Virus record (IMG/VR): IMGVR_UViG_3300021963_000572 | Coordinates: 1-26,144 of that record | From: a virus | DNA: 26,144 nucleotides | Strand: one strand, 5' to 3' | In this document: positions 9,745 to 15,309 of the stretch, piece after piece | How positions within the stretch are numbered: the stretch's first letter is position 1 | Layout of the letters: the number at the start of each line of letters is the position of its first letter | Made by a program: the position numbers and the translations under genes | The notes under the pieces: generated by a model | Databases searched by the model: none | The model's input: the letters and a program-made list of their open reading frames with translations, nothing else | What the model was told of the DNA's origin: nothing

Positions 9745-9971
9745 GGTTACTGTCACTCGATAACTCTGGCATTGCTAACTATATTCAAAATTTAGACAAA
9801 GAATCAAAACAGATCAAAGACGAAATTTTTAGAATTAGCTGGTATATGCGAGGAGGTGTATCTAGTGAATCTCTGCTGCATTCATACTCATACGAAGATC
9901 GAATGATTATGAATGAAATTATCAAAGATAATATTGAAATTACTAAAAATTCTAGATTACCACTTATTTAG
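9735..9971 (+). CDS. Frameshift-encoded extension of the gp26-like protein (gp51-like small ORF)
   Basis: The frame lies -1 relative to the gp26-like gene and is open from 9711 to the TAG at 9969-9971. After a slip at 9729-9735 it adds 78 residues beginning FRLRLLSLDNSGIANYIQ. It continues with ISWYMRGG, the HSYSYEDRMIMNEIIKDNIE helix and KNSRLPLI. This matches the style of small proteins annotated as gp51 in aquatic T4-like phages, and of the second-frame domains of tail-assembly chaperones. No ATG, GTG or TTG precedes the conserved part; the first ATG is the Met of WYMRGG, mid-domain. It must therefore be reached by frameshifting, or by a rare start such as ATT at 9717. Its end overlaps the convergent 451-aa gene by 8 bases. 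Coding reality is strong; the mechanism is inferred. Confidence 0.7.
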   Translation, partial: FRLRLLSLDNSGIANYIQNLDKESKQIKDEIFRISWYMRGGVSSESLLHSYSYEDRMIMNEIIKDNIEITKNSRLPLI

Positions 9972-11319
9972 GATTGTATCTTGTGTAATCTCGTCCTGGA
10001 CGTTTAGGAATTCCTGCTGTTGGATCTGGTCTACCTAATAAATTAGCTCTATTTTTAATATCATCAAGTGTTGAGTTCATGACATCTTGATATCCTTCTG
10101 CATCAGTTATCTGAACTCCGTCTACATATATTATTTTAGGATTTTGTGGATTGCGTTGAACTTTCATAGCAACACCATACTTGTCGTCTGGTGATGTCGC
10201 AGAAGCAGGATCGTCAGGATCAGCTGCTGGCGGCTTAGGACCTGGCAATATTTGAGGAGCAGTTACTCCTAGCTTTTCTCCAGCAGCTTCAAGTCCTGCA
10301 TTTAAAATCCCAATGGCCGTATCAGTAGTCATTCCCAACCAATCTCTTAAAGTTCTAACAGGCAAATCAAGGAAACCTCCTGTTAGATAAGAAGCAAGTT
10401 TTTGCGCTTCTGGCATTTGAACAAATGTTGTAAATGCTATTTTTCTAGCAGGACTACCGTCAAATAATTTAGCTGCTGCCTGCACAGTTCCGCCAGGTAA
10501 TTTACCTACTAGTTCGGTAATTGCTGCCAACTGTCTACCTCCAACAGCATACCCGGCTCCTTTGCCTAATACTCCACCTACTATTTTAAAGAATGCACCA
10601 ACTTTATTAAGTAGACCAAATTGAACTGCTATTACTGCCGAAGCTTCTCCTAATAAAGCTATACGTTCTCTTTGAAGAAGCTCGTAGGCTTCTTCTGGAC
10701 CAGCATCACCAAATTTTGTTGTTTTGTCGCCGTCTAGGCAAGCCTGATATTCAATTTCTAACAGTTTGTATTTTTCGTACCACTCTCTTAAATAGTTAGC
10801 GGTAAACATTAAACTAACTGCTTCTAGCGCATATCTTGGAAGATTGCTTAAACCAGTTTCAGCAGCTTTTTTAGCTTTGGCTTTACGTTCTTCGTAACGC
10901 TTTTTAGCTGCTGCTCGACCTTCGGGGGTCCTTGCATTACGCATTTCTCGATCGTATTTTTCTTTGGCTTTTCGTCTAGCTTCTCTGTGTTTTTTAATCA
11001 CATGCTCTCGAATCCAATTACCTCCCCATTTTTTAGCTGCATCAGGGAATAACCTTGCTACTGCTCGACGACCTAATCTAGCTAGACCAGGAGTGAATAA
11101 TAGAGCTGCATCTATAAAAAGTTCGCCCCATTGTTCTTCTGTAACTGACTCAGGATCATCGCCGTATTGCTTGATAAAATTGTAAATGTCATAGGCACCC
11201 CAAGCAGCCATACCTACAGAAATTGCACTCACAATAGTGCCAATACCAATTCCTGCAATAACAGCAGCAGGTGCTACTTCATTAATCTGTTTTCTTTCGA
11301 GAATTTCGTAAACTTTCAT
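9964..11319 (-). CDS. Unknown 451-aa protein, candidate internal (co-ejected) head protein
   Basis: I do not recognise a family. The N-terminus MKVYEILERKQINE is followed by VAP. It resembles the T4 capsid-targeting sequence (MKTYQEFIAE in T4 internal proteins), and INE at 12-14 (or ILE at 6-8) would be a gp21 cleavage site. Next comes a long hydrophobic stretch (about residues 16-48) able to span a membrane, and a very basic helical region (about 110-155) rich in Arg, Lys and Ala. A second hydrophobic/Gly-rich stretch (about 226-262) follows, then a Pro/Asp linker and a basic C-terminus. No enzyme motif is evident. It lies alone between the hub-chaperone gene and the structured intergenic region, with no clear Shine-Dalgarno. 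The reading as a packaged, DNA-binding, membrane-active ejection protein is inference. Confidence 0.75.
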   Translation of the reverse strand: MKVYEILERKQINEVAPAAVIAGIGIGTIVSAISVGMAAWGAYDIYNFIKQYGDDPESVTEEQWGELFIDAALLFTPGLARLGRRAVARLFPDAAKKWGGNWIREHVIKKHREARRKAKEKYDREMRNARTPEGRAAAKKRYEERKAKAKKAAETGLSNLPRYALEAVSLMFTANYLREWYEKYKLLEIEYQACLDGDKTTKFGDAGPEEAYELLQRERIALLGEASAVIAVQFGLLNKVGAFFKIVGGVLGKGAGYAVGGRQLAAITELVGKLPGGTVQAAAKLFDGSPARKIAFTTFVQMPEAQKLASYLTGGFLDLPVRTLRDWLGMTTDTAIGILNAGLEAAGEKLGVTAPQILPGPKPPAADPDDPASATSPDDKYGVAMKVQRNPQNPKIIYVDGVQITDAEGYQDVMNSTLDDIKNRANLLGRPDPTAGIPKRPGRDYTRYNPK

Positions 11320-11337
11320 GATATCTTATTTATTTAA

Positions 11338-11357
11338 AGAAGAACTAACGTTCTTCT
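11338..11357 (-). other. 8-bp hairpin in the leader of the 451-aa gene
   Basis: AGAAGAAC and GTTCTTCT form a perfect 8-bp stem with a 4-base loop, ending 19 bases before the ATG at 11319. The start has no recognisable Shine-Dalgarno, so this hairpin and the next one upstream could affect translation or protect the 5' end. It is not a terminator: no T-run follows on either strand. Confidence 0.4.
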
Positions 11358-11437
11358 GTTCTTCGCTTGCGCTCGAACTATTTTTCTTTTTTTTCTAATG
11401 CGAAGCATTTAAATATTATCTAGATTGTGTAGTCACA

Positions 11438-11457
11438 CTTAGCCCGTTAGGGCTAAG
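11438..11457. other. Perfect 8-bp GC-containing hairpin in the intergenic region
   Basis: CTTAGCCC and GGGCTAAG enclose a GTTA tetraloop. Smaller hairpins flank it: a 4-bp stem with TAGT loop at 11427-11438 and AATGC/GCATT with a 3-base loop at 11397-11409. No T-run follows, so it does not look like an intrinsic terminator. On the minus strand all three would lie in the long leader between the promoter at 11496-11523 and the 451-aa gene. Confidence 0.5.
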
Positions 11458-11495
11458 AAACATTATCTGAGTTGCTAATGTCACACAGCGTTAGG

Positions 11496-11523
11496 ACTAT
11501 AAAATGTACAATATATTAAACAA
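11496..11523 (-). promoter_or_regulatory. Promoter-like sequence overlapping an operator-like repeat
   Basis: On the minus strand TTGTTT (11518-11523) and TATAGT (11496-11501) are 16 bases apart, close to a sigma-70 promoter. It points toward the 451-aa gene, about 175 bases downstream. The spacer and -35 box coincide with one copy of the 18-bp repeat (11505-11522), the usual layout for repression. It is weaker than the gp55 and gp47 promoters. Confidence 0.4.
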
Positions 11524-11553
11524 AACACAGGATTTTGTACAATATATTAAACA
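11505..11553. repeat. Two exact 18-bp direct repeats, operator-like
   Basis: TGTACAATATATTAAACA occurs at 11505-11522 and again at 11536-11553, identical over 18 bp and 31 bp apart (about three helical turns). Each copy is itself an imperfect palindrome: TGT, two bases, AATATATT, two bases, ACA. Paired palindromes on one DNA face beside a promoter are typical of repressor or activator binding. No regulator gene is visible in this window. Confidence 0.7.
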
Positions 11554-11560
11554 TTTTTAC

Positions 11561-11820
11561 GTAGGCGGTTGTCCGGTACCTACTCATCCCGTCTTATCAC
11601 AACGGCAGGCCTGTACTGATACGCTATCATCTGTACAGCCGTTAGGGAGTCACCCTTCTTTTAGCCTTTTTTAAATCTTTTCAAACAGCAAATCCGGTTG
11701 TATGTAGGCATATCCGAACATCGTCCTGTAAAGGATAGTTGCTATAAACTCACAACGGCGAGAGATTTCCTTACCCCGCGACATCACCAGGGATTTGGGC
11801 GTCCGAAATTAGCTGACGCT
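11561..11820. ncRNA. Candidate structured non-coding RNA, class unknown
   Basis: About 260 gene-free bases carry dense nested complementarity and look more GC-rich than the neighbouring genes. The best element is an extended hairpin at 11582-11650: ACT/AGT and CCC/GGG, then AACGG/CCGTT (11601-05/11639-43), CTGTAC/GTACAG (11611-16/11633-38) and TGATA/TATCA (11617-21/11625-29) with a CGC loop. Beside it are GTAGG/CCTAC with inner CGG/CCG (11561-11583). GTTGT/ACAAC encloses smaller stems (about 11697-11756), and GCGTC/GACGC lies at 11799-11819. I find no tRNA, tmRNA or group I intron core. Strand is undecided: on the minus strand it would be the 3' end of the early operon transcript, just after the GIY-YIG gene. 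Function is unknown. Confidence 0.5.
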
Positions 11821-11824
11821 GGCT

Positions 11825-12268
11825 TTAACCGTTTGATTTTGCCTGTGCTTGTTCTAGTAATCGCTGCCTGAGTATATTTGATCCGCCAATTCTACAGTTG
11901 ATAATACCGTTATAGTATTCATCTGTTTCAAGTACACGACGTTCAAACTGTTCTCTAGCCTCTAGATATGACATTTCTGCCTTACTCTTACAGTAATAAA
12001 GTATTTCTCTAGTGAAATTTTCTGGACCTAATTGTGCTACATCTGCCTGTAGTCTATCACTTGACCCCCAATAGTCACGCCAGTCGCTTTCAACAACTGA
12101 ACGTCTTTTGAGTTTTTTGCCTTTGAGAGGTGGCCGTGTTTTTTTAAATTGGGCTAATTTTTTGCCTATATACTTTTGTCCAGTGGTGAGATTTGTAATA
12201 AGATATACAAAACCTATGTAGCCTTCGGGTATGTCTTCTACTATTTGATCTTGATATTTCCACAACAT
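11825..12268 (-). CDS. GIY-YIG-like nuclease-domain protein
   Basis: A 147-aa protein with a GIY-YIG-type N-terminus: GFVYLITN at 19-26 and KYIGKK at 32-37. A basic loop (about 42-56), SDWRDYWGSS (61-70), NFTREIL (84-90) and YLEAREQFERRVL (101-113) with likely catalytic Glu103 follow, then NGIINCRIGG. Similar small proteins occur in many aquatic T4-like phages and are usually called putative endonucleases. GIY-YIG proteins cut DNA, in homing, repair or restriction. It starts 4 bases after the 83-aa gene, as last member of the gp55-47-46 run, so it is expressed early. There is no adjacent intron core or extra DNA-binding domain, so it may be a stand-alone nuclease rather than an intron homing enzyme. 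Its activity is inferred. Confidence 0.75.
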   Translation of the reverse strand: MLWKYQDQIVEDIPEGYIGFVYLITNLTTGQKYIGKKLAQFKKTRPPLKGKKLKRRSVVESDWRDYWGSSDRLQADVAQLGPENFTREILYYCKSKAEMSYLEAREQFERRVLETDEYYNGIINCRIGGSNILRQRLLEQAQAKSNG

Positions 12269-12272
12269 GCAC

Positions 12273-12524
12273 TTAGTTAGTGTTGTTGTCGTCTTCTGCC
12301 TGTCTTTTTTGGTTTTCTTTGTACTTGGGACTTTTTACTTTTGGTTTAGTAACTCTTACTGCCTGAATTTCCTTGCGCCTATCACTGGCCAAATGCCTCA
12401 TATCACTTAATGCCTTGCGTACACGCATGCCGGCTGCGTGAGTTTCTTTAGATTCCCATTCTTGATTTAATCTAAAGTATTCACGGAATAATTCTACTAA
12501 CCGGTCATGTGCTGTTTTTGTCAT
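12273..12524 (-). CDS. Small basic protein of unknown function in the gp46/47 operon
   Basis: An 83-aa, strongly basic, mostly helical protein. It starts MTKTAHDRLVELFREYFRLN and has a second charged helix with RVRKALSDMRHLASDRRKEI. The C-terminus has a Lys-rich KPKVKSPKYKENQKRQ and an Asp/Asn end. It has no recognised domain. Its ATG overlaps the gp46 stop by 4 bases (ATGA), so it is translationally coupled to gp46, and the GIY-YIG gene follows closely. This suggests a nucleic-acid-binding helper of DNA metabolism, but that rests only on charge and position. Confidence 0.7.
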   Translation of the reverse strand: MTKTAHDRLVELFREYFRLNQEWESKETHAAGMRVRKALSDMRHLASDRRKEIQAVRVTKPKVKSPKYKENQKRQAEDDNNTN

Positions 12525-14299
12525 TCTACTATTTCTAAATCATTTGAATAACTGGTAAATCCGTTTTCTTTAATAACTTTCAATACATTATTGACACGAC
12601 CTACTAGTTCATCTTTATGACTGATAAGATAAATGTTCTTTTTACGTTCTCTTCCCATTTTCTTTAAAATACCCAGTGCATTTTCTACACCACTAGCATC
12701 AAGACCGTTATCAATTAGTTCATCAATGAACAATAAATTAATGCTTTGATATAGACTTTCCCATACATCACGAAATGCCCAAGATAATCCTAGTATCAAT
12801 CTGTTGCGTTCGCCACGACTTAGGTTATCAAAGTCTAAATCCTGTCCTAGCTGTGTAATTTCTACAGTTAAATCATTTTGAAATACAACTGTGTGAGGTA
12901 ATCCCATCTTGTCCAGATAGTAAGTTAATCTGTTATTGAGGTAGGCTAGGTTTTGATCTATGATCTTTTTGCGGATAAAGCTGTCTTTGTTAGTTAATAG
13001 CTTCAATAAAAATTCTTGATGATCTTTTAGGGTAGTTAAATTGTTAATATTGTCCCAAGTTATTTCTTGAATGGCAGTATTTCTCAACTCGTCAATTTGT
13101 TCTTGATAAGGATCTATTTCTTGTTGACGTAATGCAAGACCATTTTCTAATCCTGTAAGATTGTTCTGATGTGTCAATGCTTCTTCAATGGTGTCGTAAT
13201 AAGTTTTTGGTCTGCCATTGATGTCGCCTATTTCTTCTAGTTCTTGAACTACAGTAGCATAGCTGTCTGATACACTTTGTAGGTAAAGAAAAGCATCTGC
13301 TAAATTCTTTTCTGCAACGGCAGTCATTTCTTCGTGTGTTTGAGTATGCACACCCTGCTTACAGCTTGGACAGGTATTATTTTTTAGTTGTTCAACTTCG
13401 GTTTGATATTTTGTAACCTGTTTGTCTGCTTGAATGACAGCAGTTTCTAGTGTAGCCTTTTCTTTATTAAGGCTTTTTATCCTTGCTGCTTGCTCTTCGT
13501 AATTTTTTAATTTAGCATGTTGCTCTAATTCTTGATTAATGTCAACACTTTGTAGTTCTAAAATACTTTTAGCAATTTTTTCGCAGTCAAGTTTTTGTTG
13601 TTTAAGCCAAGCTGTTTGTCTAGTGATAAGACTGTCAATACTCTGCTGGATTTTATCGTTAGATTTTTTTGCTGCTTCTATATCAGCATTTTCTTGTGTA
13701 ATTTGATCTTTAGTCTGTCTAATTTGTTCTTTAAGAGTTTCAGCTTTTTCACTTAAAAGGGTAATTCCTAATAACTGTTCAATGATTTCTCTTTGCTCAT
13801 TGGATTTAGTAGCTAAAAAAGGCTGAGTATACGTGTTAAGAGCTACAATATTTTGAAACATTTGATGACTCATGCTAATGATGTCATCTATGTCTTTTTG
13901 TGTTTCACGCATATCGCCTTGACTATCATCGGTTTCCTCAGAAGTCAGTTCTTGATTGTCAATAAAAAATTTCATTACACTGGGTTTACGACCACGTTCT
14001 ATTCTGTAGTCTCGACCATCTTTTTCAAAAGATAATGTAACCAACATATTCTTGTTGTTGATTTTGTTAATCAAGTTATCTTTTTTAATACTAGTTAGTG
14101 CTTGGCCGTAGATAGCATAACTCAATGCGTTGACTATGGTAGTTTTACCTGTGCCATTGCGTGATCCACTATCGTCTCCACCTTGATCTAAGTTTTCTCC
14201 TAGTACAAGAGTAAGATTTTCTTTACCAAAGTCTACTGCCTGGGTTTGATTGCCCACGCTCATGAAATTTTTAACTGTTAATTCTTTGATTTTAATCAT
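12521..14299 (-). CDS. 46: Recombination endonuclease subunit gp46 (SbcC/Rad50-like ATPase)
   Basis: This is the ATPase partner of gp47. The T4 46/47 complex resects DNA ends to start recombination-dependent replication and helps degrade host DNA. The 592-aa product shows the whole SMC/Rad50 plan: Walker A ending NGTGKTT (residues 48-54) after an unusual DQGGDDSGSR insertion, and a coiled coil. A zinc hook CPSC follows at 310-313, then a second coiled coil, the ABC signature LSRGERNRLILGLSW, Walker B LLFIDELID and the H-loop ISHKDE. T4 gp46 is 560 aa, so it is full length. Its ATG overlaps the gp47 stop (ATGA), coupling the two subunits. Membership is beyond doubt; the role is taken from T4. 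Confidence 0.96.
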   Translation of the reverse strand: MIKIKELTVKNFMSVGNQTQAVDFGKENLTLVLGENLDQGGDDSGSRNGTGKTTIVNALSYAIYGQALTSIKKDNLINKINNKNMLVTLSFEKDGRDYRIERGRKPSVMKFFIDNQELTSEETDDSQGDMRETQKDIDDIISMSHQMFQNIVALNTYTQPFLATKSNEQREIIEQLLGITLLSEKAETLKEQIRQTKDQITQENADIEAAKKSNDKIQQSIDSLITRQTAWLKQQKLDCEKIAKSILELQSVDINQELEQHAKLKNYEEQAARIKSLNKEKATLETAVIQADKQVTKYQTEVEQLKNNTCPSCKQGVHTQTHEEMTAVAEKNLADAFLYLQSVSDSYATVVQELEEIGDINGRPKTYYDTIEEALTHQNNLTGLENGLALRQQEIDPYQEQIDELRNTAIQEITWDNINNLTTLKDHQEFLLKLLTNKDSFIRKKIIDQNLAYLNNRLTYYLDKMGLPHTVVFQNDLTVEITQLGQDLDFDNLSRGERNRLILGLSWAFRDVWESLYQSINLLFIDELIDNGLDASGVENALGILKKMGRERKKNIYLISHKDELVGRVNNVLKVIKENGFTSYSNDLEIVE

Positions 14300-15309
14300 A
14301 AGTTGTTGTAAATGCTCAGTAATACATTCTTGTCGTAAGTACCATTTTCAATATTAACAAGTTGATTACTCACAATTTGATCTACGCTTTCAAATGCCTG
14401 AATGTCAATATCGGTATTAATTTCAATTTCTTTCTTTTCAGGTATGAGAGTAAGTTCTCGAATGTTATAATCAGTCAAGAACTTTTCTTTAATAAAGCTG
14501 GCTTCTTCGTAGCTAATGTCAATATCTAAACTTACTCTAAGATGCATTTTACTAGTGAGCAAAGTATCGGCTTCGTCAATAAGTTGACTTAGTTTTACAG
14601 TTCTAAATCTAGGACAGTTATCCCAGTTGATATATTTTGGCTTTCCGCCCCATTCTAAAATCATCATACCGCGATCATCGTCCCATGCATCTGCATAGTT
14701 GTGCGGAAATGCATTACCAATGTAGTGCATATTTTTCTTATTTTGACGCTTATGAAAGTGTCCGCTGAAGCCTAGTTCGTATTCAGCAAAATTATCCAGT
14801 TGAATCTCACCATGATCCGGCATCTGTACCATGGCATTCATAAAGAAGTTAGGCAGTTCAAAGTGACCAAAAATATACTTGCCACCTTTTTTACCAATTG
14901 ATTTCCATTCGTCGCCTACTAACCACGGACACATAGTGACATCGCCTGTGGTTATTGGCTTATGTACAATGGTAATGCCTGGAATATACTTGCCAAACTC
15001 AACAGAGTGGATATCACGTTTATCTTTATAGTAAAGATCATGATTGCCTGGAAAGAAAAAGAACTGATCAAATGCAGCTCCTAGTTTTTCCAAGGCACGT
15101 AGACTGTAATCCATTGTGGTAATGTTTAACGAATTACGATTGTGATGCCAATCTCCTAAAAAGATGCCAGTATCGCATCCTTCTTTTTTAGCAGTAGCAA
15201 TAAACCAATCAATGAACTCGTCGCAGTCTTGATTGTGTACTTGACTATTTGATTTTAAACCAAAGTGAATATCAGTAAAACATGCGGCTTTTTTAAAAAG
15301 ATTACTCAA
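14296..15309 (-). CDS. 47: Recombination endonuclease subunit gp47 (SbcD/Mre11-like nuclease)
   Basis: This is the metallophosphoesterase nuclease that works with gp46. All metal-binding motifs are present in the 337-aa product: DIH (13-15), LGDWHHNR (51-58), GNHD (88-91), GHFE (148-151) and SGHFHKR (182-188). Length matches T4 gp47 (339 aa). The start is TTG at 15309, chosen because a perfect GGAGG lies 7 bases upstream and no in-frame ATG precedes the DIH motif. It has its own near-consensus sigma-70 promoter at 15330-15358, whose -35 box overlaps the gp55 stop codon, so it can be expressed apart from gp55. gp46 follows with a 4-base overlap. Confidence 0.96.
   Translation of the reverse strand: MSNLFKKAACFTDIHFGLKSNSQVHNQDCDEFIDWFIATAKKEGCDTGIFLGDWHHNRNSLNITTMDYSLRALEKLGAAFDQFFFFPGNHDLYYKDKRDIHSVEFGKYIPGITIVHKPITTGDVTMCPWLVGDEWKSIGKKGGKYIFGHFELPNFFMNAMVQMPDHGEIQLDNFAEYELGFSGHFHKRQNKKNMHYIGNAFPHNYADAWDDDRGMMILEWGGKPKYINWDNCPRFRTVKLSQLIDEADTLLTSKMHLRVSLDIDISYEEASFIKEKFLTDYNIRELTLIPEKKEIEINTDIDIQAFESVDQIVSNQLVNIENGTYDKNVLLSIYNNL

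What the first reader, a model, noticed from the sequence alone, without database searches (positions are those of the whole stretch)
11561..11820. About 260 nt of densely structured non-coding sequence in an otherwise packed genome
The region has no ORF, yet holds a multi-segment hairpin at 11582-11650 with four successive perfect stems (up to 6 bp) and small bulges. Further stems lie at 11561-11583, 11697-11756 and 11799-11819. Its composition differs from the flanking genes. It follows a GIY-YIG nuclease gene and precedes a candidate capsid-targeted protein. It could be a phage regulatory RNA, a processed 3' UTR, a nuclease-associated RNA or a DNA structure site. It fits no class I can recognise.
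Basis: seen in the sequence. Interest (0 to 1): 0.68.

Follow-up and report, generated by a model that had tools for sequence, protein, structure and literature searches.

The report
A 500-nucleotide structured phage RNA
The gap holds a roughly 500-letter folded RNA that many freshwater relatives of phage T4 keep, and that some bacteria carry beside antiviral genes; only about a quarter of it was known before, as an RNA of unknown function.

Summary
The gap is a conserved structured RNA on the minus strand, about 500 nt (window 11334-11834), running from the stop codon of a SegE-like GIY-YIG gene to just before the next gene's late-type promoter. Its 5' 142 nt match Rfam RF01718 (Polynucleobacter-1, 77.8 bits), a family of unknown function; the other ~360 nt are outside that model. 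Fifty diverse phage copies give overwhelming covariation (94.7% of cells paired, against 76% shuffled and 34-49% slid), including three pseudoknots. The 3' third carries two direct repeats whose 7-mer core takes ten forms yet is identical in both copies in 148 of 153 loci. The RNA keeps its genomic place but survives replacement of the GIY-YIG gene, and GIY-YIG relatives occur without it, so it is not a nuclease guide, intron or leader. Homologues sit in Burkholderiales chromosomes, beside DUF6641 genes, behind T4-late-like TAAATA motifs, in restriction/Zorya-like islands and an integrase-bearing element. Best reading: an infection-stage ornate RNA comparable to GOLLD/ROOL but unrelated to them by Rfam, shared between T4-like phages and phage-responsive host cassettes. 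What the RNA does in the cell is inferred, not shown.

The parts
11334..11834 (-). Full RNA, about 500 nt (5' end near 11834, 3' end near 11334)
   Evidence: Conserved from GIY-YIG stop to HP-B across phages; full-length fold z -3.30, 0/100 shuffles
11683..11824 (-). Part covered by Rfam RF01718 (Polynucleobacter-1)
   Evidence: cmscan 77.8 bits, gathering 37, model 1-141/141
11535..11660 (-). 3' domain found by covariance model R1, which was built without the window
   Evidence: 62.5 bits, E 9.4e-14
11828..11833 (-). PK1 5' strand AACGGU, overlapping the end of the GIY-YIG ORF; pairs with 11754-11759 in the loop of hairpin P4 (11748-11766)
   Evidence: Partner-swap test z 10.4, 0/200; coordinates
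11799..11820 (-). Hairpin P2
   Evidence: Covarying helix 1
11685..11746 (-). P5 (11738-11746 with 11685-11692), enclosing a short hairpin and P7 (11691-11719)
   Evidence: Helices 2-4
11644..11656 (-). Hairpin P8
   Evidence: Partner-swap z 11.6
11603..11641 (-).
   Evidence: Helix 5, 12/12 pairs with two-sided changes
11599..11603 (-). PK2 5' strand GUUGU, pairing with ACAAC at 11568-11572
   Evidence: Helix 7, 98.8% of cells paired; z 11
11560..11585 (-). P11 hairpin GAGUAGGUACCGGACAACCGCCUACG, carrying the PK2 3' strand
   Evidence: Helix 9, 99.5% paired
11494..11589 (-). P10 (GGAU 11586-11589 with GUCC 11494-11497); in this phage extended by a 49-nt expansion hairpin at 11505-11553
   Evidence: Helix 8
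11484..11492 (-). PK3 3' strand, pairing with the P9 loop
   Evidence: Helix 6, 98.0% paired, 7/7 pairs with two-sided changes; z 9
11461..11486 (-). Direct repeat R1, 7-mer core AGATAAT
11438..11457 (-). Central hairpin between R1 and R2
   Evidence: Outer pairs 99.6% paired vs 90% when swapped
11414..11438 (-). Direct repeat R2, same 7-mer core AGATAAT
   Evidence: Core identical to R1 in 148/153 loci over 10 forms
11358..11379 (-). HP-A, hairpin with GAGCG..AGCGA
11338..11357 (-). HP-B, terminal 8-bp hairpin
   Evidence: 35 distinct stem sequences in 50 loci
11318..11336 (-). TAAATA late-type promoter motif of the next gene, just after the RNA
   Evidence: Alignment
11825..12268 (-). Upstream SegE-like GIY-YIG gene (147 aa)
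   Evidence: PF19835 E 7.7e-35; phrog_447
12521..15309 (-). gp46 and gp47 (SbcC/SbcD-like), the fixed upstream neighbours
9964..11319 (-). Downstream 451-aa gene; this slot is variable between phages and sometimes empty

Best explanation
It is a stand-alone, large, highly structured non-coding RNA of T4-like myophages, about 500 nt, on the minus strand. Shown: it is conserved, folds with at least three pseudoknots, ends in two hairpins, and carries two short direct repeats whose cores stay identical. Shown: it keeps its place after the gp55-gp47-gp46 cluster while both neighbouring genes can be replaced. Shown: homologues with the same architecture lie in Burkholderiales chromosomes, in DUF6641 cassettes. 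Inferred: it is made as the tail of the gp47-gp46-GIY-YIG transcript and accumulates during infection as a free particle, working like GOLLD/ROOL. Inferred: the twin repeats are two copies of one contact site, for a phage- or host-specific protein, nucleic acid, or another copy of the RNA. Inferred: the host copies are switched on by the phage's late transcription machinery through TAAATA promoters, and act in the phage-host or phage-satellite contest.
For: Covariation: 51 pairs, 94.7% of cells paired vs 76.4% shuffled and 34-49% slid, 458 two-sided cells vs 134; PK1 z 10.4. A 3'-domain model built without the window finds it (E 9.4e-14) and one strong copy per genome in records up to 355 kb. 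R1 = R2 in 148/153 loci with ten core forms, and by eye in families B and C. Fixed synteny; RNA kept when GIY-YIG is replaced or missing. Bacterial copies keep a PK3-like pairing (9, 12, 11 and 8 bp in L444, L458, L460, L440) and the twin repeats. TAAATA on the cargo strand in 12/15 DUF6641 loci vs 0.11 expected. Type III R-M and ZorD-like neighbours. Precedent: the most abundant ICP1 transcript is a ~800-nt ncRNA compared there with GOLLD and ROOL (PMC7567579).
Against: No transcript data exist here for any member and no isolated phage with the RNA was found, so expression and abundance are inferred. No intrinsic terminator or promoter stands out near the RNA. Only about six bacterial copies were seen, the phage 3'-domain model does not detect them, and TAAATA could serve something other than a phage sigma factor. 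No oligomerisation or binding partner has been tested.
Confidence: 0.55

Rival explanations
1. Structured 3' UTR or processing element: the RNA protects or regulates the gp47-gp46-GIY-YIG operon in cis.
For: It starts at the GIY-YIG stop codon, PK1 overlapping the last codons, and lies on the operon's strand in fixed synteny.
Against: The preceding gene can be a PD-(D/E)XK nuclease or other unrelated genes, and the RNA lies in unrelated contexts in L251 and in bacteria. Three pseudoknots and twin repeats exceed what a stabilising UTR needs.
Confidence: 0.2
2. The RNA is a guide or cofactor of the GIY-YIG nuclease, an OMEGA-like pair.
For: In 90 of 108 RNA-pattern hits the GIY-YIG gene is directly upstream; the only Pfam domain of the 147-aa protein is the nuclease domain.
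Against: RNA without an adjacent GIY-YIG gene (L229, L251, L216, L223, L268) and GIY-YIG without the RNA. Variable segments are compensated stems, not a free guide. The locus is not mobile.
Confidence: 0.04
3. A replication-origin or recombination element, with R1/R2 as DNA sites (iterons or recombinase core sites) and the RNA as an R-loop primer.
For: The direct repeats stay identical, as a tyrosine-recombinase overlap would have to; they lie by replication genes, and some bacterial copies are near tyrosine recombinases.
Against: No recombinase is seen at the phage locus, repeat spacing varies from 47 to 79 bp, several bacterial copies have no integrase nearby (L443, L462), and most of the sequence is constrained as RNA.
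Confidence: 0.12
4. A cis-regulatory leader or riboswitch for the downstream late gene.
For: It lies upstream of a late gene in most phages; Weinberg et al. list Polynucleobacter-1 with 'y' in the second of three yes/no columns, read here as possibly cis-regulatory (PMC2864571).
Against: The downstream gene varies freely and has its own TAAATA after the RNA; in L148, L127 and L113 no such gene follows, yet the RNA is kept.
Confidence: 0.06

Closest known systems
Polynucleobacter-1 RNA (Rfam RF01718)
   Same: The 5' 142 nt match the whole model at 77.8 bits.
   Different: The model covers about 28% of the RNA, lacks PK1-PK3, the twin repeats and terminal hairpins, and misses sequence families B, C and D. 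Its phage home and DUF6641 cassettes were found in no paper searched here.
GOLLD and ROOL large ornate RNAs
   Same: Large, pseudoknotted phage RNAs outside genes, function unknown (PMC12286853).
   Different: No Rfam match to either; shorter (~500 nt vs about 660 to over 800); no tRNA in the window; twin repeats and stop-codon overlap not described for them in what was read.
The ~800-nt ncRNA of phage ICP1 and the PLE satellite transcript
   Same: Phage and satellite in one host both make abundant non-coding RNA (PMC7567579).
   Different: No homology shown; the ICP1 and PLE RNAs are not described as related to each other, whereas here the phage and chromosomal copies are one family.
OMEGA / IS200-type nuclease-RNA pairs
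   Same: RNA directly follows, and slightly overlaps, a nuclease ORF.
   Different: No obligate association, no guide, no mobility.

Membership tests
RF01718 Polynucleobacter-1 | Covariance-model score above gathering over the full model | tested here: met
   77.8 bits vs 37, model 1-141 of 141
RF01718 Polynucleobacter-1 | RNA limited to the ~141-nt motif | tested here: not met
   Conserved structure continues ~360 nt further, in phages and in the bacterial RF01718 hits
GOLLD / ROOL | Match to the Rfam models | tested here: not met
   No match at gathering or E <= 10
GOLLD / ROOL | Location often near tRNA islands | tested here: not met
   No tRNA in the window
GOLLD / ROOL | Assembly into an RNA-only nanocage | not testable with these tools
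   Needs cryo-EM or mass photometry
Group I / group II intron | Intron core and interrupted exon | tested here: not met
   No Rfam intron match; lies between intact genes in fixed synteny
OMEGA-like nuclease-RNA system | Obligate pairing of nuclease and RNA | tested here: not met
   Each occurs without the other
OMEGA-like nuclease-RNA system | Hypervariable unpaired guide | tested here: not met
   Variable stretches are mostly compensated stems; the twin 7-mers have no conserved complement nearby
tmRNA | ARAGORN or Rfam tmRNA match | tested here: not met
Cis-regulatory leader | Constant downstream gene in the same transcript | tested here: not met
   Downstream gene variable or absent; co-transcription itself not testable

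The most novel reading that the evidence does not exclude
The chromosomal copies are phage-triggered mimics: DUF6641 cassettes in defence islands and integrative elements keep a T4-late-type promoter in front of a copy of a phage RNA, so that the infecting phage's own late sigma factor makes the mimic. The mimic then competes with the phage RNA for the partner recognised by the twin repeats, or lets a satellite exploit the phage. That would be a defence or satellite principle based on a decoy of a large phage RNA.
Probability: 0.2. Interest if true: 0.9.

Novelty: new variant of a known kind. Interest (0 to 1): 0.72.

Why it matters
A 2010 orphan RNA motif turns out to be the 5' fragment of a ~500-nt ornate RNA widespread in environmental T4-like phages, also present in host cassettes beside antiviral genes. 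This gives it a strand, extent, fold, genomic home and a testable recognition element (twin 7-mers that change in step), and adds another class to the large phage RNAs whose function is a long-standing question.

Tried and rejected
Mobile-element reading: rejected, the locus is syntenic across 80+ contigs. Nuclease-guide reading: rejected by two-way dissociation. R1/R2 as promoters of the next gene: rejected, in the phage loci scanned they occur only in this RNA and persist where no such gene follows. A weak R1-model hit in phage Melnitz (16.4 bits) lies in a tail-fibre gene and is taken as chance. A pattern scan of bacterial genomes gave GC-rich chance hits. Searches for isolates with families A-D failed. 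PA5oct and Kaldavass have the same gene order but no detectable copy. The first windows chosen for the PK1 and P8 tests were wrong and were redone. The first HP-A regular expressions were too loose and were replaced. DUF6641 is not in the phage loci.

Full report
What is there. The window is a 26-kb viral fragment of a T4-like myophage: major capsid, protease, portal, gp46/gp47, late sigma factor and baseplate genes. The longest gap studied lies between a 147-aa SegE-like GIY-YIG gene (11825-12268, minus; PF19835) and a 451-aa gene (9964-11319, minus). Rfam finds one RNA in the window: RF01718 Polynucleobacter-1 at 11683-11824, minus strand, full length, 77.8 bits.

Extent and fold. Eighty GIY-YIG relatives in viral contigs showed that almost all have a conserved untranslated stretch right after the stop codon. 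Fifty diverse copies gave 32 of 46 predicted pairs with compensatory change. A hand-drawn structure of 51 pairs, with two pseudoknots, has 94.7% of cells paired against 76.4% in shuffles and 34-49% in slid controls, and 458 two-sided changes against 134. The structure was drawn from these same sequences, so the slid control favours it somewhat; the two-sided changes are the stronger evidence. A third pseudoknot, from the end of the upstream ORF into the loop of hairpin P4, is supported by partner-swap tests (z 10.4). G-U pairs kept in up to 49 of 50 sequences fix the strand. The 3' end is a pair of hairpins, HP-A and HP-B; HP-B has 35 different stem sequences in 50 loci. A covariance model of the 3' domain, built without the window, finds it at 11535-11660 (E 9.4e-14) and one strong copy per genome in large contigs.

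Twin repeats. After the third pseudoknot come two direct repeats flanking a hairpin. Their 7-mer core takes ten forms among 153 loci, but both copies carry the same form in 148; independent draws would give about 22% by the observed frequencies. Relatedness inflates this, but nine forms beyond the commonest must have arisen as joint changes, and families B and C, read by eye, add ACATGAT, ACATGAA and GAATAAT, again in both copies. No conserved complement lies nearby, so the partner is probably in trans. A strict scan found twin repeats in 66 of 76 loci, and twins plus HP-A in 45, against 0.07% in shuffled sequence. Loci not found by that scan include the window for HP-A, whose stem is shorter than the scan demands, and loci whose repeats differ slightly or whose 3' part is rearranged.

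Context in phages. Gene order is fixed: late sigma - gp47 - gp46 - small ORF - GIY-YIG - RNA - variable late gene - baseplate hub. The RNA does not need the GIY-YIG gene: in L229 that slot holds a PD-(D/E)XK nuclease (PF24608), in L216, L223, L268 and L273 other genes intervene, and in L251 the neighbourhood is different. GIY-YIG relatives occur without the RNA in Melnitz, C48C1, ACP17 and phiM12. So the pairing is positional.

Copies in bacteria. Among 399 genomes of one bacterial order, reached through a contig titled Burkholderiales, RF01718 gave three hits above cut-off and one below. Each lies divergent from a DUF6641 gene (PF20346). The DUF6641 loci found in 300 genomes were then examined (18 loci): five or six carry the RNA, others carry other cargo. 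TAAATA, the core of the T4 late promoter (established knowledge), stands on the cargo strand in 12 of 15 loci against 0.11 expected. The RNA cassettes lie by type III restriction-modification genes (L443, L462) and a ZorD-like helicase (L441), or inside a gene set with tyrosine recombinases and a clamp-loader-like ATPase (L440, compare L465). The bacterial copies keep a pairing like the third pseudoknot (L444, L458, L460, L440; L459 is unclear), the twin repeats with other 7-mers and, where looked for by eye, the terminal hairpins. The 3'-domain model built from phages does not detect them, so their kinship rests on RF01718 plus shared architecture.

What it is. The RNA and its fold are shown. 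Its production during infection, oligomer or protein partner, and role are inferred. It most resembles GOLLD and ROOL, large ornate phage RNAs of unknown function (PMC12286853), and the dominant non-coding transcript of ICP1 (PMC7567579); it is not a member of GOLLD or ROOL by Rfam. The presence of the same RNA in late-promoter cassettes of bacteria points to a role in the contest between phage and host or satellite, but that step is conjecture.

Limits. No isolate with the RNA and no transcript data were found. Literature was searched only in the open library at hand; RF01718 appears there in one paper.

Noticed in passing
window 11825-12268; L229 3963-4484; L466; L467: The slot next to gp46 holds different nucleases in related phages: GIY-YIG here, PD-(D/E)XK in L229, RusA in PA5oct, endonuclease VII in Kaldavass. 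The GIY-YIG protein may be a junction-resolving enzyme rather than a homing enzyme.
   Followed up: partly
L466 about 1500-2600 (PA5oct, record about 75.7-76.8 kb): A roughly 1-kb ORF-poor stretch with raised G+C (0.38-0.41 vs 0.24 in its flanks) at the corresponding place; possibly another large RNA, in a phage with a published omics study.
   Followed up: partly
L445, L449, L461 downstream of the DUF6641 start: A shared GC-rich non-coding stretch (AACGCGGGTTG..ACGTCGGCTAA..CCCGCAC) in DUF6641 cassettes without this RNA; possibly a second structured RNA cargo.
   Followed up: no
L440 and L465: An 8-9 kb integrative element in Burkholderiales: two tyrosine recombinases, DUF6641, TAAATA-driven cargo, two unknown proteins and a clamp-loader-like ATPase; a candidate satellite of T4-like phages.
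   Followed up: partly
window 9964-11319 and downstream genes of other loci: Unrelated downstream late genes share an N-terminus like MKVYEIL, which looks like a common targeting signal.
   Followed up: no
L011 vs window: The first ~170 nt of the RNA are nearly identical to the window, the rest belongs to another subtype: RNA halves seem to recombine.
   Followed up: no
window 12273-12524: 83-aa ORF with a weak match to histone H1-like Hc1, conserved upstream of the GIY-YIG gene.
   Followed up: no
window 11505-11553: A 49-nt near-perfect A+T-rich hairpin inserted in helix P10, absent from most relatives; family B phages have a similar expansion at the same place.
   Followed up: partly
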